Below are positions 1 to 5,203 of a stretch of DNA of 5,203 bases, one piece after another. Where the stretch lies: NCBI GenBank assembly GCA_903907475.1, contig CAIVOB010000077.1, positions 1 through 5,203 of the forward strand, written 5' to 3'. Position 1 is the stretch's first letter, and each line of letters begins with the position of its first letter. Below the pieces are notes generated by a model. That model saw only the letters and a program-made list of their open reading frames with translations. It had not been told where the DNA came from and did no database searches. This DNA comes from Candidatus Omnitrophota bacterium (GTDB taxonomy: Bacteria > Omnitrophota > Gorgyraeia > Gygaellales > Profunditerraquicolaceae). The position numbers and the translations under genes were made by a program.

Positions 1-111
1 ACATCAACTAGGAAATTAAAATCACCGCTAATCATGCTTAATAATTGCGGATTCGGCGGAATAAATACCGTTTTAATTTTAAAACCACTACTAAAAAATA
101 TAAATGATTAA
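1..111 (+). CDS. Beta-ketoacyl synthase (FabF type), C-terminal end only
   Basis: The first 36 codons run open in frame 1 and stop with TAA at 109-111; the start lies upstream of the window. The visible peptide carries the closing motif of condensing enzymes, NNCGFGGINTVLIL (residues 14-27 of the fragment), which corresponds to the NSFGFGGTN loop near the C-terminus of FabF/KAS II. In that family the Phe of GFGG is the gatekeeper next to the active-site pocket. The residue two before it, Phe in E. coli FabF, is Cys here. The protein would be a cytosolic enzyme extending ACP-bound acyl chains by decarboxylative condensation. The active-site Cys and two His residues are outside the window, so activity cannot be judged. 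The gene overlaps the next start by 8 bases (ATGATTAA), which suggests coupled expression with its ketosynthase-like partner. Confidence 0.82.
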   Translation, partial: TSTRKLKSPLIMLNNCGFGGINTVLILKPLLKNIND

Positions 112-649
112 AGGTACCGGTTGGATTACAGAAAAAAAATACGGTTGCCGGAAACGGCAATTGGAGCAAACATATTCGGATTTAAGGTTTCTACCCGCAC
201 ACTTACCACCGGAAATTTTAAAATATCCTATAGCAAATTTCCTACGTTTTGATACAATTTCTAAATTCACTATCATTAGCATTGCCCTGGCTTTATATGA
301 CGCGAAGATCTCTTATGCCAAGGGTAAAAAACAGGATCTTTCCATTTTAGGCGCCAACGCTCAAGGATCACAAGATGCAAACCTGGCTTATTTTAATGAT
401 TACGCGCTTCACGGAAGAAGTTTGGCACGCGGGAATCTTTTTATCTACACTTTACCATCAAGCCCTTTAGCAGAAGCGGCGATTCATTTTGGATTAACCG
501 GTAAACTTTTATATTTAGGATTTGCAAAAGAATTTAAAGAAAACTCCCTAGAATACGCCTTAAATATGTTTAAAGATGAAAAACACAAAACTATAATTCT
601 CGTTAACGCCGATTCTAAAACGGCGATTTGCAATATCTTACAAAAATGA
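104..649 (+). CDS. Truncated ketosynthase-like protein, probable chain-length-factor-type partner (ApeC-like)
   Basis: This 181-residue protein resembles the N-terminal half of a beta-ketoacyl synthase. Its first residues, IKGTGWITEKKYG, match the opening strand of ketosynthases (I-G-G-x-V-T-x-x-G). Residues 117-138 (LPSSPLAEAAIHFGLTGKLLYL) match the segment leading to the active site. Where ketosynthases have the nucleophilic Cys (GPNLxVxTAC), this protein reads GKLLYLGFAK, with Lys142 at the Cys position by eye. The C-terminal half with the two catalytic His residues is absent. It is therefore almost certainly not a condensing enzyme by itself. Short ketosynthase-like proteins of the Ketoacyl-synt_2 type (ApeC) pair with a full ketosynthase (ApeO) in aryl polyene pathways, and the adjacent upstream ketosynthase end fits that pairing. 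The ATG at 104 is chosen because it begins exactly at the first conserved strand. The stop overlaps the next start as ATGA. It could instead be a decayed gene, but the frame is intact and flanked by coupled genes. Confidence 0.78.
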   Translation: MIKGTGWITEKKYGCRKRQLEQTYSDLRFLPAHLPPEILKYPIANFLRFDTISKFTIISIALALYDAKISYAKGKKQDLSILGANAQGSQDANLAYFNDYALHGRSLARGNLFIYTLPSSPLAEAAIHFGLTGKLLYLGFAKEFKENSLEYALNMFKDEKHKTIILVNADSKTAICNILQK

Positions 650-1905
650 AATTAAAACTTATTTATCCTAAGTGGCCAAAATTGAAGAACCAACCGGAAT
701 TTAATTTACCTCCCCATGGCCCGATATGTTTTGCGGCCACCATTCCCGGTAACGTGGAAGTATCTTTTTGCGACGAAAACGTCGAAATTTTAGATTTTAA
801 CGCCGAAGCGGATTTTATCTGTTTATCGGTAATGCTCACCTGTCAAATGCCCCGTGCCTGGGAGATTGCCGATCAATACCGCCAAAAAGGAAAAAAAGTT
901 TTATTCGGCGGAATTGCCACGATGCTGCATTACGAAGAAACCGCTTTACATGCCGACAGCGTCTTTTTGGGAGAAGCCGAAGGCAGAATGGAAGAAGTTA
1001 TCGCTGACTTTAAAAACGGATCTTTAAAGAAAGTTTATAATTATTTAAATAATTTTCCGGATACCAATTTGATCGGAAACGCGCGGCGGGATATTTTAAA
1101 ACGCCCGCTTTATAATTTTCGCGGCGTCCAAATGGTAGATTTAGTTCATGCTTCACGCGGTTGTCGTTTTAATTGTTTTCCCTGCTGCACTCCGTATTTA
1201 GGCGGATGTAAATTTCGCCCGCGGCCGATTGATTTAGTGGTTAAGGAATTAGCAAGTATCCAAAATAACCGTTTATTTATTGTTGATAATTCTTTAGCGC
1301 AAAATGATGCCTGGGAGAAAGAATTATTTAAAGCCATCGCGCCTTTAAAGAAAAAATGGGTTTCGCATCCGATTAAAGATAACGATGAAATTCTCGATCT
1401 GGCAGTTAAGGCAGGATGTTGGTATGTCTATCAGGCGGTAGTAGACACCTCCGAGCATATCCGTAAAAAAGTCAAACGCCTGCAGGACCGAGGAATTGGT
1501 GTCGAAGGCACCATTATCCTGGGAATGGATAATCATGACGAAGATTATATTAAACGCTTAGTGGATTTTCTGCTAGAGATTAAACTCGATCTGGCGGAAT
1601 TTACCATTCTGACTCCTTTTGCGCATACTCCAATCAGAACGCAGTTAGAAAAAGAGGGCCGGATTCTGCATAATAACTGGATTAATTATACCGGAGGAGA
1701 AGTAGTCTTTAAACCGGCAAAAATGAGCGTTGATGCGTTAGAAAAAATGTATGAATACGCCTGGAACACTTTTTATTCTGACTATAGCAAAGAAATGAAG
1801 ATGGCCAAACTCTATCTTAAAGTAATCGAAAAAGAAAAACTTGATGGCACCTACGCCGGCCCCCCGTTAAGAGAGCGGTCCAAATGGGGAAAAAAACAAC
1901 CATGA
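646..1905 (+). CDS. B12-binding-like radical SAM protein (first of a tandem pair)
   Basis: This is a 419-residue cytosolic iron-sulfur enzyme. The radical SAM cluster motif is GCRFNCFPC, with ligands Cys173, Cys177 and Cys180 (CX3CX2C). The position before the last Cys, usually aromatic, is Pro179, and two more Cys follow at 181 and 188. Residues about 45-125 look like the degenerate Rossmann domain of B12-type radical SAM proteins: VLFGGIATMLH (85-95), then DSVFLGEAEG (104-113), matching the usual GG...GExE pattern. The DxHxxG cobalamin ligand motif is absent, as is common in this class. The C-terminal part, with LGMDNHDED (292-300) and LDLAEFTILTPFAHTPI (314-330), resembles the hopanoid-type HpnP/HpnJ group and BchE relatives. 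The substrate is unknown; neighbours suggest an acyl or polyene chain. The start is placed at ATG 646, giving an ATGA overlap with the upstream stop; a TTG at 628 is less likely. No Shine-Dalgarno motif is visible. Confidence 0.88.
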   Translation: MKLKLIYPKWPKLKNQPEFNLPPHGPICFAATIPGNVEVSFCDENVEILDFNAEADFICLSVMLTCQMPRAWEIADQYRQKGKKVLFGGIATMLHYEETALHADSVFLGEAEGRMEEVIADFKNGSLKKVYNYLNNFPDTNLIGNARRDILKRPLYNFRGVQMVDLVHASRGCRFNCFPCCTPYLGGCKFRPRPIDLVVKELASIQNNRLFIVDNSLAQNDAWEKELFKAIAPLKKKWVSHPIKDNDEILDLAVKAGCWYVYQAVVDTSEHIRKKVKRLQDRGIGVEGTIILGMDNHDEDYIKRLVDFLLEIKLDLAEFTILTPFAHTPIRTQLEKEGRILHNNWINYTGGEVVFKPAKMSVDALEKMYEYAWNTFYSDYSKEMKMAKLYLKVIEKEKLDGTYAGPPLRERSKWGKKQP

Positions 1906-3272
1906 AAGTTTTCTTAATCTCCTCAAATATCGCCAACACTCCTTATTCCGTGTACCCTTTAGGTTTAAGTATGATTGCCGCCAGCCTTAAAAATGCCGGA
2001 CATAGCGTTAAACAGTTTGATTTTCTGGCCGCTAACCGCTCAATGGAAACATTAACTGGCGCCATTAAAACCTACGCCCCGGAAATTATCGGAATCTCGA
2101 TCCGCAATATTGATAATGTAAATTTACTTAATGAGCAACGGTATATCGCGACCGTAAAAAATATCGTTCAGGAGATTCGCCAAGTAAGCAAGGCAAAAAT
2201 AATCTTAGGCGGCTCCGGTTTTTCGATCATGCCGGAAACGATCCTTAAAAAAGTGGGCGCCGATTATGGAATTATGGGAGAGGGGGAGGCTTTAATTATT
2301 GACTTCCTGGACCAAGCGAGCAAAGGAGTTTACCCTAAAGAGAAGATTATCCGCTCAGCACCTAAATTATGTTCCACCCAAATTCCTTCTGCCGACTATG
2401 ATTCCGAAATTATGCAATTTTATCTTAAAAGCGGTAATGTTGCCAGCGTGCAAACTAAACGCGGCTGCCGGCATAAATGCGTCTATTGCTCATATCCCAT
2501 ATTAGAAGGAGCGGATATCCGCACGCGCGATACCCAAGCAGTAGTTGATGATATTCAAAATTTAATCTTAAACTTTAAAGCAAAATATATTTTCTTCACC
2601 GATTCAGTATTTAATGATGACGCTGGTAATTATCTTAAAGTTTTAACAGAAATGAAAAAACGAAAAATTAATATCCCCTGGACGGCATTTTTTAAACCTC
2701 AAGGCTTAGATGATGCGGCGCTGGTATTAATGCAAGAAACCGGCTTAAAAGCCGCGGAGATTGGCGCGGATGCCAGCTCCGACATCACTTTAAAAGCATT
2801 AGGCAAATCCTTCTTATTTCAAGATGTGATTGAATGTAACGCTTTGTTTGCTAAATATAATATCGCTACCGCGCACTATTTTATGTTCGGTTCGCCCGGG
2901 GAGACCAAAGAGACGGTAATGACAGGAATTAATAATATTAAAAGTTTAACTAAAACCGCTTCTTTTATTTTTATGGGAATCCGCATCTTACCCAAAACAC
3001 CATTAGCCCAATTAGCGATTAAAGAAGGGCTGCTTAAACCGGATCAAGACTTACTGGAGCCGGTTTATTACATTGCTCCGGGCCTAGACAGAATTTGGCT
3101 AGAAGAAACCTTAACTGAAGCTTTTAAAGGAATCCGTAATTGCGTTTTCCCGCCTGATGCTTTAGACAACAGTTTGGCATTTTTACATCAGCTCGGATAC
3201 TCCGGTTCACTTTGGGAGATGCTCATTCCGGGAAATGCCAAACGCAACCGCAAAAAACAGAATGCAAAATAA
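1902..3272 (+). CDS. B12-binding domain/radical SAM protein (second of a tandem pair), probable lipid-modifying type
   Basis: This 456-residue protein has a clear two-domain build. Residues 1-140 form the B12-binding fold: MKVFLISSN as first strand, YPLGLSMIAASLKNAGHSV (18-36), PEIIGISIR (60-68), IILGGSGFS (100-108) and DYGIMGEGEA (121-130). Residues about 180-380 form the radical SAM core with RGCRHKCVYC, ligands Cys189, Cys193 and Cys196, and the expected Tyr before the last Cys. MFGSPGET (328-335) is the GxPGET turn typical of these enzymes. The tail is basic (KRNRKKQNAK). Members use cobalamin and S-adenosylmethionine for methylations or other radical reactions at unreactive carbons; the substrate here is unknown. 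It differs clearly from the preceding radical SAM gene, so the pair is not a recent duplication. ATG 1902 is chosen because it gives an ATGA junction and starts at the first strand. ATG 1884 would add six residues and cannot be excluded. Confidence 0.9.
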   Translation: MKVFLISSNIANTPYSVYPLGLSMIAASLKNAGHSVKQFDFLAANRSMETLTGAIKTYAPEIIGISIRNIDNVNLLNEQRYIATVKNIVQEIRQVSKAKIILGGSGFSIMPETILKKVGADYGIMGEGEALIIDFLDQASKGVYPKEKIIRSAPKLCSTQIPSADYDSEIMQFYLKSGNVASVQTKRGCRHKCVYCSYPILEGADIRTRDTQAVVDDIQNLILNFKAKYIFFTDSVFNDDAGNYLKVLTEMKKRKINIPWTAFFKPQGLDDAALVLMQETGLKAAEIGADASSDITLKALGKSFLFQDVIECNALFAKYNIATAHYFMFGSPGETKETVMTGINNIKSLTKTASFIFMGIRILPKTPLAQLAIKEGLLKPDQDLLEPVYYIAPGLDRIWLEETLTEAFKGIRNCVFPPDALDNSLAFLHQLGYSGSLWEMLIPGNAKRNRKKQNAK

Positions 3273-4458
3273 TAATTCTATTCACCTCCAGGATATTTGG
3301 TGCGTGATTCCCACTTTTAATAATCTTAAAACCATTCAAAAAGTAGCTTTCGACTGTCAAAAATATCTACCGCAAATACTGGTGGTTGATGACGGATCAA
3401 CGGAAGGCAATATTGCCGAGTTATTTGCCAATACCAAAGTTAAAGTTTTAAAACATGAAAAGAATTTAGGTAAGGGACAGGCAATCCGCAGCGCATTAGA
3501 TTTTATTCAAAAACACAACGGAAAATTCATGCTCACGATTGATGCTGACCTGCAACATTACCCTGAGGATCTGGCTAAATTCATCGCACTTTTAGATCAA
3601 AATGAAGCTGCAATTATTATTGGTTGTCGGGATTTTAAACAAAAAAATGTTCCTGGAAAAAGTCAATTCGGCCGCGCCTTTTCCAACTTTTGGCTACGCC
3701 TGGAAACCGGAGTCGCGATTAACGACTCACAAAGCGGATTCCGAAGTTACCCGGTGCGCTATCTTGCGCAAATTAAAACCAGCGGTAATTATTATGATTT
3801 TGAAACTGAAATTTTAACCCGCGCATCTTGGGCGGGATTAGCACTCAAAGAAGTCCCGATTAAAGTCTTTTATCCTGAAGCGCATTTACGCGTCAGCAGT
3901 TTTCATCCGCTGCTTGATAATTTACGCATTAGTTTAATGCATTTACGTTTAATCGGACGCCGGCTTATACCGCTACCGTATCCGAAAGTAATTTCACGAA
4001 TAAAAAATAATCAATCCTTAAAAATTTTCACCCATCCGTTAAAATTATTAAAAAACTTACTACAAGAAAATGCCACTCCACTGGGACTGGCGATCTCTGC
4101 CGGAGTAGGAGTCTTCTTGGGTGTTTTACCTTTAGTTTCCTTTCATATGCTAGCAGTGCTTTATGTCACCAGCCGGCTGCATTTAAATAAAATTATGGCT
4201 TTAAGCGTGCAAAATCTATGTATGCCGCCTTTTGTGCCGGTAGCTTGCATTGAAATGGGGCACTTTTTACTCCACCAAAAATGGCTGACCGTTATTTCCT
4301 GGCAAGCAATTTTTGGCAATATACCGGAAAGAATCTGGGAATGGTTTCTGGGTTCATTAGTACTTGCTCCATTATTGACATTAATCATCAGTATAATAAT
4401 TTATTTTACAGCGCAAGGAATCCAACGCCAATTGATCAAAAATGCCAAACACTCCTAA
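3262..4458 (+). CDS. Family 2 glycosyltransferase fused to a C-terminal DUF2062 membrane domain
   Basis: The 398-residue protein has two parts. Residues about 11-235 are a GT-A glycosyltransferase of the dolichol-phosphate-mannose-synthase type: WCVIPTFNN (13-21), VVDDGS (41-46) for nucleotide-sugar binding, NLGKGQAIRSAL (68-79), the metal-binding DADLQ (94-98), and NDSQSGFRSY (154-163). Residues about 259-385 match DUF2062: ATPLGLAISAGVGVFLGVLPL (271-291), HLNKIMALSVQNLCMPPFVP (307-326), and a final hydrophobic span (363-383). This suggests about three membrane segments holding the catalytic domain at the inner membrane. The likely role is moving a sugar from a nucleotide donor to a lipid or polyprenyl-linked acceptor; donor and acceptor are unknown. 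Family 2 enzymes next to LpxL-like acyltransferases are usual in aryl polyene-type clusters. ATG 3262 (11-base overlap) is preferred; ATG 3235 would add nine residues (38-base overlap). Neither has a well-placed Shine-Dalgarno motif. Confidence 0.9.
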   Translation: MQNNNSIHLQDIWCVIPTFNNLKTIQKVAFDCQKYLPQILVVDDGSTEGNIAELFANTKVKVLKHEKNLGKGQAIRSALDFIQKHNGKFMLTIDADLQHYPEDLAKFIALLDQNEAAIIIGCRDFKQKNVPGKSQFGRAFSNFWLRLETGVAINDSQSGFRSYPVRYLAQIKTSGNYYDFETEILTRASWAGLALKEVPIKVFYPEAHLRVSSFHPLLDNLRISLMHLRLIGRRLIPLPYPKVISRIKNNQSLKIFTHPLKLLKNLLQENATPLGLAISAGVGVFLGVLPLVSFHMLAVLYVTSRLHLNKIMALSVQNLCMPPFVPVACIEMGHFLLHQKWLTVISWQAIFGNIPERIWEWFLGSLVLAPLLTLIISIIIYFTAQGIQRQLIKNAKHS

Positions 4459-5203
4459 TAAAAATAAGATTACCGTTAAAAAAAGAGGTAACCGTTTAGG
4501 ATTCTGGTTTTTTAAAATATTTTTAAGATTCACGGGTTTAAACGGTGCCTATGCTTTACTATATTTCGTAGCTTTACATTATTTGATTTTTGATCACAGC
4601 GCGGTAACAAGCGCTTTAAGTTACATTCGAAAAAGATTCCCCAGTGCTAATTTTCTTAAGTGCCGGTTAGAAATTTACCGCTTGTTTATCAGCCAAGGCA
4701 AACAGCTCATTGACCGGGGAGCAATGCTCTCGGGAAAGATTCACTTTGACATCGAACTCCAAGGTTATGAGCAACTAAGTAATTTATTAGCTTCTAAAGA
4801 TAAGGGTTTTGTACTTTTAACGGCGCACGTGGGAAATTGGCAAATCGCCTTAACGACTTTAAAAAAATTAAACAAACCGGTATATCTGGTGATGCGGCCG
4901 GAAGATAACGCCGCGGTAAAAGAGTCCTTAAATATTGACGCTCAAGACAGTTTTATTAAAATTATCTCTCCCGATGGATTTCTGGGGGGAGTCGTAGAAG
5001 CAATGCAAGTTTTAAAAACAGGTGGGATTGTTTCCATTATGGGTGACCGTAAATATGGATTTGAAGCGCTAGAGATTTCATTTTTAAAAAATAAAGCCTA
5101 TTTTCCTTTCGGTGCTTTTAGCCTTGCCGCTAGTTCTAACTGTCCAATTGTGGTATTATTATCTGCGAAGCTAGCGAAAAATAAATACCGCGTAGATGTT
5201 TCA
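4442..5203 (+). CDS. LpxL/HtrB-like lysophospholipid acyltransferase, N-terminal part (cut by window end)
   Basis: The frame stays open for 254 codons to the window edge; the family is usually near 300 residues, so the C-terminus is missing. Residues 19-50 hold the amphipathic and hydrophobic N-terminal stretch typical of these inner-membrane-bound enzymes. The conserved LLTAHVGNWQIA block (125-136) corresponds to the HX4(D/E) catalytic motif of lipid A secondary acyltransferases, with His129 but Gln134 in place of the acid. IVSIMGDRKYGFEAL (196-210) matches the GDR block following in this family, and FPFGAFSLAASSNCPIVVLL (221-240) matches the downstream core. The role would be transfer of an acyl group from acyl-ACP to a glycolipid or lipid acceptor at the cytoplasmic face. 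In this setting the donor could be the chain made by the ketosynthase pair. A TGA at 4433-4435 closes the frame upstream, so ATG 4442 is the only ATG start; it overlaps the glycosyltransferase stop by 17 bases. Confidence 0.86.
   Translation, partial: MPNTPNKNKITVKKRGNRLGFWFFKIFLRFTGLNGAYALLYFVALHYLIFDHSAVTSALSYIRKRFPSANFLKCRLEIYRLFISQGKQLIDRGAMLSGKIHFDIELQGYEQLSNLLASKDKGFVLLTAHVGNWQIALTTLKKLNKPVYLVMRPEDNAAVKESLNIDAQDSFIKIISPDGFLGGVVEAMQVLKTGGIVSIMGDRKYGFEALEISFLKNKAYFPFGAFSLAASSNCPIVVLLSAKLAKNKYRVDVS

What the first reader, a model, noticed from the sequence alone, without database searches (positions are those of the whole stretch)
1..5203. Operon joining an aryl polyene-like ketosynthase pair with two B12-type radical SAM genes and a glycosyl/acyl transfer module
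Seen: a FabF end, a Cys-less short ketosynthase-like protein, two different radical SAM genes, a GT2-DUF2062 protein and an LpxL-like acyltransferase, all overlapping on one strand. Known: aryl polyene clusters pair ApeO/ApeC-type ketosynthases with glycosyl- and acyltransferases, and gene sets proposed for ladderane lipids combine FabF homologues with radical SAM genes. Inference: the locus may make an envelope-bound polyene or carbocyclic glycolipid whose chain is altered by radical chemistry, which neither pathway alone describes.
Basis: partly seen in the sequence, partly recalled or inferred. Interest (0 to 1): 0.75.

Follow-up and report, generated by a model that had tools for sequence, protein, structure and literature searches.

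The report
Polyene-lipid gene cluster with radical enzymes
This stretch is the middle of a roughly 27-kilobase gene cluster, shared by several groups of mostly uncultured bacteria, that likely builds a polyene-like fatty chain, is predicted to alter it with oxygen-independent radical enzymes and would attach it to the cell envelope; its product is unknown.

Summary
The window is a whole 5.2-kb contig of a genome whose named relatives are Omnitrophota. Overlapping on one strand it carries the end of a ketosynthase, a 181-aa ketosynthase-like protein without a nucleophile Cys (ApeC, the aryl-polyene chain length factor, ranks first in Foldseek, barely ahead of FabF-type enzymes), two radical SAM genes, a GT2-DUF2062 protein and an LpxL-like acyltransferase. 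In two sister genomes the module is one 27-30 kb block between a porin and a GH57 gene; four of seven relatives read have that site empty. The order recurs in other Omnitrophota families and Nitrospirae. rSAM2 is TIGR04072 (631 bits, cut-off 360) and keeps TsrM's Arg below cobalt in 120 of 120 homologues, but not its iron-blocking Glu; rSAM1 folds most like AprD4. Best reading: an oxygen-independent relative of aryl-polyene/flexirubin clusters that edits an ACP-bound chain before envelope attachment. Ladderane-like ring formation is not excluded. antiSMASH 'ladderane' clusters in Omnitrophota are already in print; product and enzyme functions are untested.

The parts
1..111 (+). C-terminal end of ketosynthase KS-B (catalytic-type KS in sister genomes; the rest lies off the contig and was not found in this genome's other contigs read)
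   Evidence: Frame reads TSTRKLKSPLIMLNNCGFGGINTVLILKPLLKNIND*; sub-threshold FabF-end hits; 68% to the end of G026 KS-B, whose Cys-His-His positions are kept
104..649 (+). ORF2: short ketosynthase-like protein without nucleophile Cys, ApeC-like (predicted chain length factor)
646..1905 (+). rSAM1: radical SAM enzyme near no named family, with N-terminal Rossmann/B12-like domain
1884..3272 (+). rSAM2: TIGR04072 'rSAM_ladder_B12' B12-binding radical SAM enzyme
   Evidence: 631.3 bits vs cut-off 360; next families BzaD 201, tryptophan C2-methylase 133; TsrM best in PDB by sequence, 111.5 bits; TsrM Arg69 equivalent R in 120 of 120, Glu273 equivalent V/L in 120 of 120
3235..4458 (+). GT2 glycosyltransferase with C-terminal DUF2062
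   Evidence: PF00535 71.7 bits, PF09835 45.1 bits; nearest NCBIfam PpgS, 81 of 370 bits
4442..5203 (+). LpxL-like acyltransferase, cut by the contig end
   Evidence: PF03279 41.4 bits vs 22.3; 302-303 aa orthologues in G013, G026, G011

Best explanation
The window is the core of a ~27-kb cluster that likely makes an envelope-bound, polyene-like acyl lipid, in which two radical SAM enzymes are predicted to modify the carrier-protein-bound chain without oxygen. Shown by sequence: the gene set, its order, its intact motifs, its recurrence and its presence/absence at one chromosomal site. Inferred steps: (1) an FlxY-like ligase would activate an acid starter; (2) KS-B with the ApeC-like ORF2, and KS-C with KS-D, would extend it as ketosynthase/chain-length-factor pairs, with FabG and the ApeI-like dehydratase leaving double bonds; (3) on ACP-B, rSAM2 would transfer a methyl from cobalamin to the chain or aryl head as a radical counterpart of TsrM, and rSAM1 would do a second, AprD4-like hydrogen-abstraction step; (4) thioesterase, GT2-DUF2062, LpxL-like and LPLAT enzymes would move the chain to a sugar or phospholipid anchor (the role proposed for ApeJ/ApeD); (5) LolA, the RND/MMPL-type pump and the DUF3261-like protein would take it to the outer membrane.
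For: Own-genome flanks on C44, C182, C174; whole block in G013 (27,314 bp) and G026 (29,702 bp). APE/flexirubin parts: ORF2 fold; ligase FlxY 468.6 bits (cut-off 520, next family 183); LolA2_flexi 116.2 (cut-off 125); LolA, 4HBT, FabA-like Pfams over cut-off; pump 76.6 bits to RND-like HpnN, E 1e-21. KS-A/B/C keep the catalytic Cys and His, KS-D does not. rSAM2 nearest families BzaD and TsrM; Arg69 R in 120/120, Glu273 position never Glu (the residues' roles from passages of PMC8992657). No SAM-methyltransferase domain in the cluster proteins put to Pfam. ACP-B (median 77%, 7 loci) and rSAM1 (73%, 8 loci) are the best conserved against G026 in Omnitrophota of other families; other scored genes 21-62%, the lowest (KS-A, rSAM3, rSAM4) being matches to paralogues. 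In G184 rSAM1 is followed directly by ACP-B, and the genome has no TIGR04072 at E <= 1e-100.
Against: No starter source found: no chorismate lyase in 6 of 6 genomes; no full aromatic ammonia-lyase in 6 of 6 (one 79-position fragment at a contig edge in G011). Ligase and LolA fall just under the flexirubin cut-offs. Pfam MMPL 16.7 (cut-off 20.5), DUF3261 22.0 (22.3) and ApeI-like 23.8 (28.5) are under theirs. TIGR04072 is named for lipid/ladderane context, not methylation. ORF2-ApeC is remote (13% identity, rmsd 7.9) and tied with FabF-type rows. BzaD as a ring C-methylase is recalled; the passage read says only methyltransferase. Families of other chemistry lie between TsrM and background for rSAM2 (slr0320 92, PhpK P-methylase 89, TIGR04013 85 bits). 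G329 has rSAM2 without rSAM1 beside it. rSAM-SPASM, rSAM3 and rSAM4 are also in the block, so which enzyme does which step is uncertain.
Confidence: 0.5

Rival explanations
1. Ladderane-type carbocycle pathway: the radical SAM enzymes would cyclise a polyunsaturated ACP-bound chain into fused rings, as proposed for anammox bacteria.
For: rSAM2 is TIGR04072, 'lipid biosynthesis B12-binding/radical SAM'; phytoene-dehydrogenase-like, PCL, FabG, extra KS and rSAM genes match the gene types listed for Kuenenia/Desulfotalea; weak AmcF/AmcG/AmcB similarity, named as cispentacin biosynthesis proteins.
Against: Desulfotalea with such genes gave no ladderanes (PMC2649909 abstract); anammox genes in E. 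coli gave none (PMC9821293 passage). The cluster carries an APE/flexirubin-type export set. AmcF/G/B scores are all below cut-off. No anammox genome was reached for comparison.
Confidence: 0.15
2. Anaerobic polyunsaturated fatty acid or hydrocarbon pathway: the enzymes would set double bonds in a membrane lipid, with no methyl or ring step.
For: Rattray 2009 proposes this for the Kuenenia/Desulfotalea clusters after finding polyunsaturated hydrocarbons in Desulfotalea; rSAM1's closest structure AprD4 is a dehydratase.
Against: rSAM2 has a strong B12-binding domain and keeps the TsrM Arg in 120 of 120, which points to methyl transfer rather than desaturation; a dedicated glycosyl/acyl transfer and export set is not needed for a hydrocarbon.
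Confidence: 0.18
3. Ordinary flexirubin or aryl-polyene cluster with the usual product; the radical SAM genes only replace methyl and starter enzymes.
For: FlxY 468.6 and LolA2_flexi 116.2 bits, just under cut-off; ORF2 fold; export genes as in E. coli APE (PMC8253772 passages) and flexirubin (PMC3992019 section 4).
Against: No starter enzymes found; five radical SAM genes (SPASM, rSAM1-4) on the own-genome contigs are more than a simple replacement needs; both flexirubin cut-offs missed.
Confidence: 0.12
4. Binning or assembly artefact: the contig does not belong to this genome or joins unrelated genes.
For: The contig is short and ends inside genes at both ends; no exact end overlap with C44 or C182; GC of cluster parts is slightly above the flanks (0.40 vs 0.37).
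Against: Same-genus orthologues at 78-84% in 4 of 26 other genomes; same order on long contigs; missing genes on own contigs next to genus backbone genes.
Confidence: 0.02

Closest known systems
Aryl polyene (ape) clusters of E. coli / Xenorhabdus
   Same: KS plus a short KS-like partner, carrier proteins, FabA/ApeI-like dehydratase, 4HBT thioesterase, FabG, LolA, RND-type pump, DUF3261-like protein, glycosyl- and acyltransferases (PMC8253772 Table 1 in passages)
   Different: No ApeB-type methyltransferase found in the proteins scanned; PaaK/FlxY-type ligase; up to five radical SAM genes, phytoene-dehydrogenase-like and FAD enzymes; GT2-DUF2062 and LpxL-like are separate genes, ApeJ is listed as glycosyltransferase/acyltransferase
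Flexirubin (flx) clusters of Bacteroidota
   Same: Closest ligase (FlxY) and LolA (LolA2_flexi) families; glycosyltransferase, acyltransferase, exporter
   Different: Both just under curated cut-off; no whole FlxA-type ammonia-lyase found in 6 genomes; radical SAM genes added; DarA/DarB not searched
Ladderane-associated clusters of anammox bacteria and Desulfotalea (Rattray 2009)
   Same: TIGR04072, PCL, phytoene-dehydrogenase-like, FabG, several KS, radical SAM and GT genes (PMC2649909)
TsrM (tryptophan C2-methylase) and BzaD
   Same: rSAM2's nearest solved structure by sequence and nearest named families; Arg under the cobalt kept
   Different: TsrM's Glu273 that blocks SAM at the iron is V/L in 120 of 120, so radical chemistry is open
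AprD4 radical SAM diol dehydratase
   Different: 18% identity; NCBIfam AprD4 score only 24.5 of 500 bits; substrate unrelated

Membership tests
TIGR04072 (rSAM_ladder_B12) | Score over curated cut-off 360 bits | tested here: met
   631.3 bits over positions 1-442
Aryl polyene cluster | KS with short ApeC-type chain length factor beside it | tested here: inconclusive
   KS-B then ORF2; ORF2 has the ketosynthase-half fold, ApeC first in Foldseek but tied with FabF-type rows and not among the 50 VIA rows; pairing untested
Aryl polyene cluster | LolA / RND-MMPL / DUF3261 export set | tested here: inconclusive
   LolA 60.6 bits over cut-off; MMPL 16.7 (20.5) and DUF3261 22.0 (22.3) just under; pump 76.6 bits to HpnN, under that model's cut-off too; same order in relatives
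Aryl polyene cluster | SAM methyltransferase ApeB in the cluster | tested here: not met
   No such domain in the cluster proteins put to Pfam; two antisense ORFs of G013 not scanned
Aryl polyene cluster | 4-hydroxybenzoate supply by chorismate lyase | tested here: not met
   PF04345 in 0 of 6 cluster-bearing draft genomes; E. coli control found
Aryl polyene cluster | Aryl polyene product | not testable with these tools
   Needs pigment/lipid chemistry
Flexirubin cluster | FlxY ligase over cut-off 520 | tested here: not met
   468.6 bits
Flexirubin cluster | FlxA ammonia-lyase | tested here: inconclusive
   PF00221: none in 5 of 6, edge fragment in G011; genomes are drafts
Flexirubin cluster | DarA/DarB | not tested
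   No search made for them
Ladderane cluster | Orthology to anammox genes | not testable with these tools
   None of the 80 loci kept from the one genome scan is titled as anammox
Ladderane cluster | Cyclobutane lipids | not testable with these tools
   Needs lipid mass spectrometry
TsrM-like methylase | Arg in cobalt lower axial place | tested here: met
   R in 120 of 120 rSAM2 homologues
TsrM-like methylase | Glu ligating the unique iron (non-radical mechanism) | tested here: not met
   V 107, L 13 of 120; I in L015

The most novel reading that the evidence does not exclude
A widespread but undescribed oxygen-independent branch of the aryl-polyene/flexirubin world: a mobile ~27-kb module in anaerobic bacteria makes a new class of outer-membrane polyene lipid whose ACP-bound chain is methylated by a radical counterpart of TsrM (rSAM2) and dehydrated or rearranged by a new AprD4-fold family (rSAM1).
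Probability: 0.3. Interest if true: 0.75.

Novelty: new variant of a known kind. Interest (0 to 1): 0.52.

Why it matters
Gene-cluster surveys label such loci 'ladderane' without a product. The work here separates two types that both carry TIGR04072, shows that this one has an aryl-polyene/flexirubin-type export set and is a block that sits in, or is missing from, one site, and gives residue-level reasons to test rSAM2 as a cobalamin methylase. If right, it would name a membrane lipid class of anoxic habitats and two new radical SAM activities on carrier-bound chains, and would warn against reading these clusters as evidence for ladderanes.

Tried and rejected
Rejected: canonical fab operon (extra KS/CLF, rSAM, GT and export genes); chance neighbourhood (10 of 10 adjacent); artefact. 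FAD oxidoreductase, rSAM3, rSAM4 and the second ligase are counted in the block because they lie inside it, not because a role is known. The 'Cond' protein has only sub-threshold acyltransferase matches, so its label is by eye.

Genomes that break the pairing: G035's rSAM1 is cut by its contig end. G184 has rSAM1 but no TIGR04072. G329 has rSAM2 (50% to G026) with no rSAM1 match in the 1.1 kb before it, none in the genome at E <= 1e-90, and no GT2 after it: a real exception. G169, G343 and G385 miss the rSAM1 threshold but hold a 33% rSAM1-like gene directly before rSAM2. Among 9 named loci with rSAM1, ORF2-like matches stand upstream in 6; L088 and L095 start within rSAM1 or within 325 bases of it; L071 (NaphS2) has rSAM1 apart from rSAM2 and no ORF2 match.

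Conservation medians use only loci with 70% coverage, so n differs by gene; rSAM3, rSAM4 and KS-A values in Omnitrophota there are paralogue matches. In the VIA list ApeC does not appear.

Literature: no paper read whole. PMC2649909: abstract, passages, section 9; PMC3992019: passages and section 4 part 1 of 2; passages only of PMC9902471, PMC4790861, PMC9821293, PMC8253772, PMC8123684, PMC4489286, PMC11968836, PMC8992657; all others only in listings. Ten paper searches: nothing I saw in their listings or in the passages describes the window-type cluster; most subscription papers and preprints are not held. Recalled, from no call: BzaD as aromatic C-methylase, BuS5 being cultured, ketosynthase topology used to place the nucleophile in ORF2.
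Full report
What is there. The window is an entire contig, G000:C77, 5203 bases, of a 1.19-Mb draft genome. Six genes run on the + strand with overlaps of 4-38 bases: the last 36 codons of a ketosynthase; ORF2 (181 aa); rSAM1; rSAM2; a GT2-DUF2062 protein; and an LpxL-like acyltransferase cut by the contig end. The closest relatives of rSAM2 and ORF2 that bear an organism name are called Candidatus Omnitrophota/Omnitrophica; two sit on contigs of the same length as same-genus contigs G026:C16 (55,817) and G013:C51 (73,662). The host is therefore taken to be Omnitrophota.

The flanks. In sister genomes G013 and G026 the six genes lie inside a 27.3- and 29.7-kb block: FabG, phytoene-dehydrogenase-like PD, KS-A, ACP-A, LPLAT acyltransferase, PaaK/FlxY-type ligase, radical SAM-SPASM, LolA, RND/MMPL-type pump, DUF3261-like protein, FabA/ApeI-like dehydratase, 4HBT thioesterase (no match in G013), KS-B, two small lipoprotein-like genes in G026 and G011, ORF2, rSAM1, rSAM2, GT2, LpxL-like, ACP-B, KS-C, KS-D, a zinc-ribbon protein, ACP-C, an acyltransferase-like protein, FAD oxidoreductase, rSAM3 (not in G013), rSAM4 and a second ligase. 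The window's own genome holds C44 (porin, FabG to a cut thioesterase), C182 (cut KS-C to the acyltransferase-like gene) and C174 (that gene to the second ligase, then GH57). The body of KS-B, the end of LpxL and ACP-B fall in the gaps and were not seen in G000. Contig ends do not overlap exactly, so order across gaps is inferred from the sisters.

One site, full or empty. GH57 is present in 21 of 26 genus genomes drawn, whereas rSAM2 is in 5 of 27 including the own genome. In G000, G013 and G026 the block lies between an alginate-export-type porin (54% between G026 and G013; Pfam) and GH57; in G011 the GH57 side agrees and the other side was not read. Of seven non-carrier loci read, four (G003, G019, G010, G020) have porin and GH57 72-81 bases apart by alignment ends, two (G021, G022) about 600 bases apart, and one (G008) has 5 kb of other genes there (LpoB-, TPR- and trypsin-type Pfams). 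The block is therefore a discrete module; gain versus loss is not resolved.

Spread. Of 384 Omnitrophota genomes drawn, TIGR04072 is over its cut-off in 14 (0 of 14 control genomes) and rSAM1 (E <= 1e-90) in 12. Ten have both, and in these ten rSAM1 directly precedes rSAM2. In the Omnitrophota loci read that hold rSAM1 at 60% or more, ORF2 is upstream in 15 of 15, and GT2 follows rSAM2 in 13 of 13 that hold both rSAM genes. The other 71 carry a distant rSAM2 (30-40% to G026) in other settings, including cultured Geobacteraceae (Oryzomonas japonica L038, Geomonas sp. Red32 L062); Rattray 2009 names Geobacter and Pelobacter as having Kuenenia-like clusters. G169, G343 and G385, over the TIGR04072 cut-off at 406-434 bits, have such a distant type with PCL, SPASM, FabG and PD beside it. 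So TIGR04072 covers at least two cluster types.

rSAM2. It scores 631 bits to TIGR04072; the next families are BzaD (201) and tryptophan C2-methyltransferase (133), then slr0320 (92), PhpK P-methylase (89), TIGR04013 (85), HpnJ (73), MCR glutamine methylase (68), BchE (66), and lower ones such as AprD4 (55) and HpnR (55). In the PDB it is closest by sequence to TsrM. In the alignment printed, TsrM Arg69, under the cobalt, and Glu273, which blocks SAM at the unique iron (roles from passages of PMC8992657), fall on Arg68 and Val236 of rSAM2 (numbered from ATG 1902). Arg is kept in 120 of 120, the Glu position is V or L in 120 of 120 (I in L015), and CX3CX2C is complete in 120 of 120. These 120 are the window protein and the best 119 others of 3989 hits, so they are near relatives; in the nine-row alignment with two distant-type sequences the Arg is also invariant. 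I read this as a cobalamin methylase with the radical route open. That is inference.

Coupling of rSAM1 and ACP-B. Against the G026 proteins, medians in Omnitrophota loci of other families are ACP-B 77% (n=7), rSAM1 73% (n=8), rSAM2 62% (n=8), KS-C 56% (n=7), GT2 54% (n=8), LpxL-like 53% (n=7), KS-B 50% (n=9), ORF2 41% (n=9), MMPL-type pump 37% (n=8); ACP-C, as a control carrier, 50% (n=5). Four loci outside Omnitrophota (three Nitrospirae and one titled only 'bacterium') give ACP-B 76% (n=3) and rSAM1 73% (n=4). In G184 a short version, KS-B, ORF2, rSAM1, ACP-B, is followed by a Phd/ParE-type toxin-antitoxin pair. I infer that rSAM1 acts on a chain held by ACP-B.

Against an aryl head group. 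FlxY is a proven 4-coumarate ligase (PMC3992019) and our ligase is nearest to it, but a whole aromatic ammonia-lyase was found in none of 6 genomes (a fragment in G011) and chorismate lyase in none of 6. The starter may be another acid or come from outside.

What is known. Rattray 2009 described the anammox/Desulfotalea clusters and found no ladderanes in Desulfotalea; Javidpour 2016 expressed the Kuenenia genes (PMC4790861 passages), without ladderanes according to a later paper (PMC9821293 passage). A Cariaco Basin survey reports expressed antiSMASH 'ladderane' clusters in Omnitrophota and other phyla and says they may serve unknown functions (PMC9902471). Nothing seen in ten searches of an open-access library describes the window-type cluster; that library misses most subscription work. 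Verdict: real, conserved, of a known broad kind, with an untested and testable chemistry; a new variant rather than a new category.

Noticed in passing
L134:447-5572 (G008:C52): The porin-GH57 site that holds the block in carriers holds a different 5-kb cargo in G008 (LpoB-, TPR- and CsgG/trypsin-type Pfams), so the site may be a general insertion spot.
   Followed up: partly
L011 (G026:C16, region 25454-28018 of the joined stretch): FAD oxidoreductase and rSAM3 read in pieces in G026, while one frame spans each in G011 and tblastn spans them in own contig C174; G013 has no rSAM3.
   Followed up: no
L026:1643-5720 (G184:C70): Short version KS-B, ORF2, rSAM1, ACP-B without rSAM2, GT2 or LpxL-like on the contig, followed by a Phd/YefM antitoxin and ParE-type toxin pair.
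   Followed up: partly
L028 (G329:C82): rSAM2 (50%) without rSAM1, ORF2 or GT2 matches on the 5.7-kb contig; followed by carrier-protein-, Cond- and rSAM3-like matches.
   Followed up: partly
L076, L080, L081, L082, L085, L102: Bacteroidales/Bacteroidetes contigs share another arrangement: FabG, KS, ACP, (LpxL-like), distant rSAM2 (33-35%), thioesterase, KS, ACP, KS.
   Followed up: no
L038 and L062 (also L034-L062 in part): Distant rSAM2 with FabG and KS genes in Oryzomonas japonica and Geomonas sp. Red32, named strains usable for lipid work on the other cluster type.
   Followed up: no
L010:13090-14223, L011:2743-5237: KS-B, KS-C, KS-D and ACP-B show sub-threshold similarity to cispentacin proteins AmcF, AmcG and AmcB; the AmcG model (157 positions) is short like ORF2.
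   Followed up: no
window:104-649: ORF2 Cys15 and Cys176 are conserved in 32 and 30 of 35 homologues although the nucleophile place is empty; their role is unexplained.
   Followed up: no
L007/L014 (G037:C2): A same-order genome has a 32-33% rSAM2-like gene with no cluster gene matched around it except another radical SAM gene.
   Followed up: no
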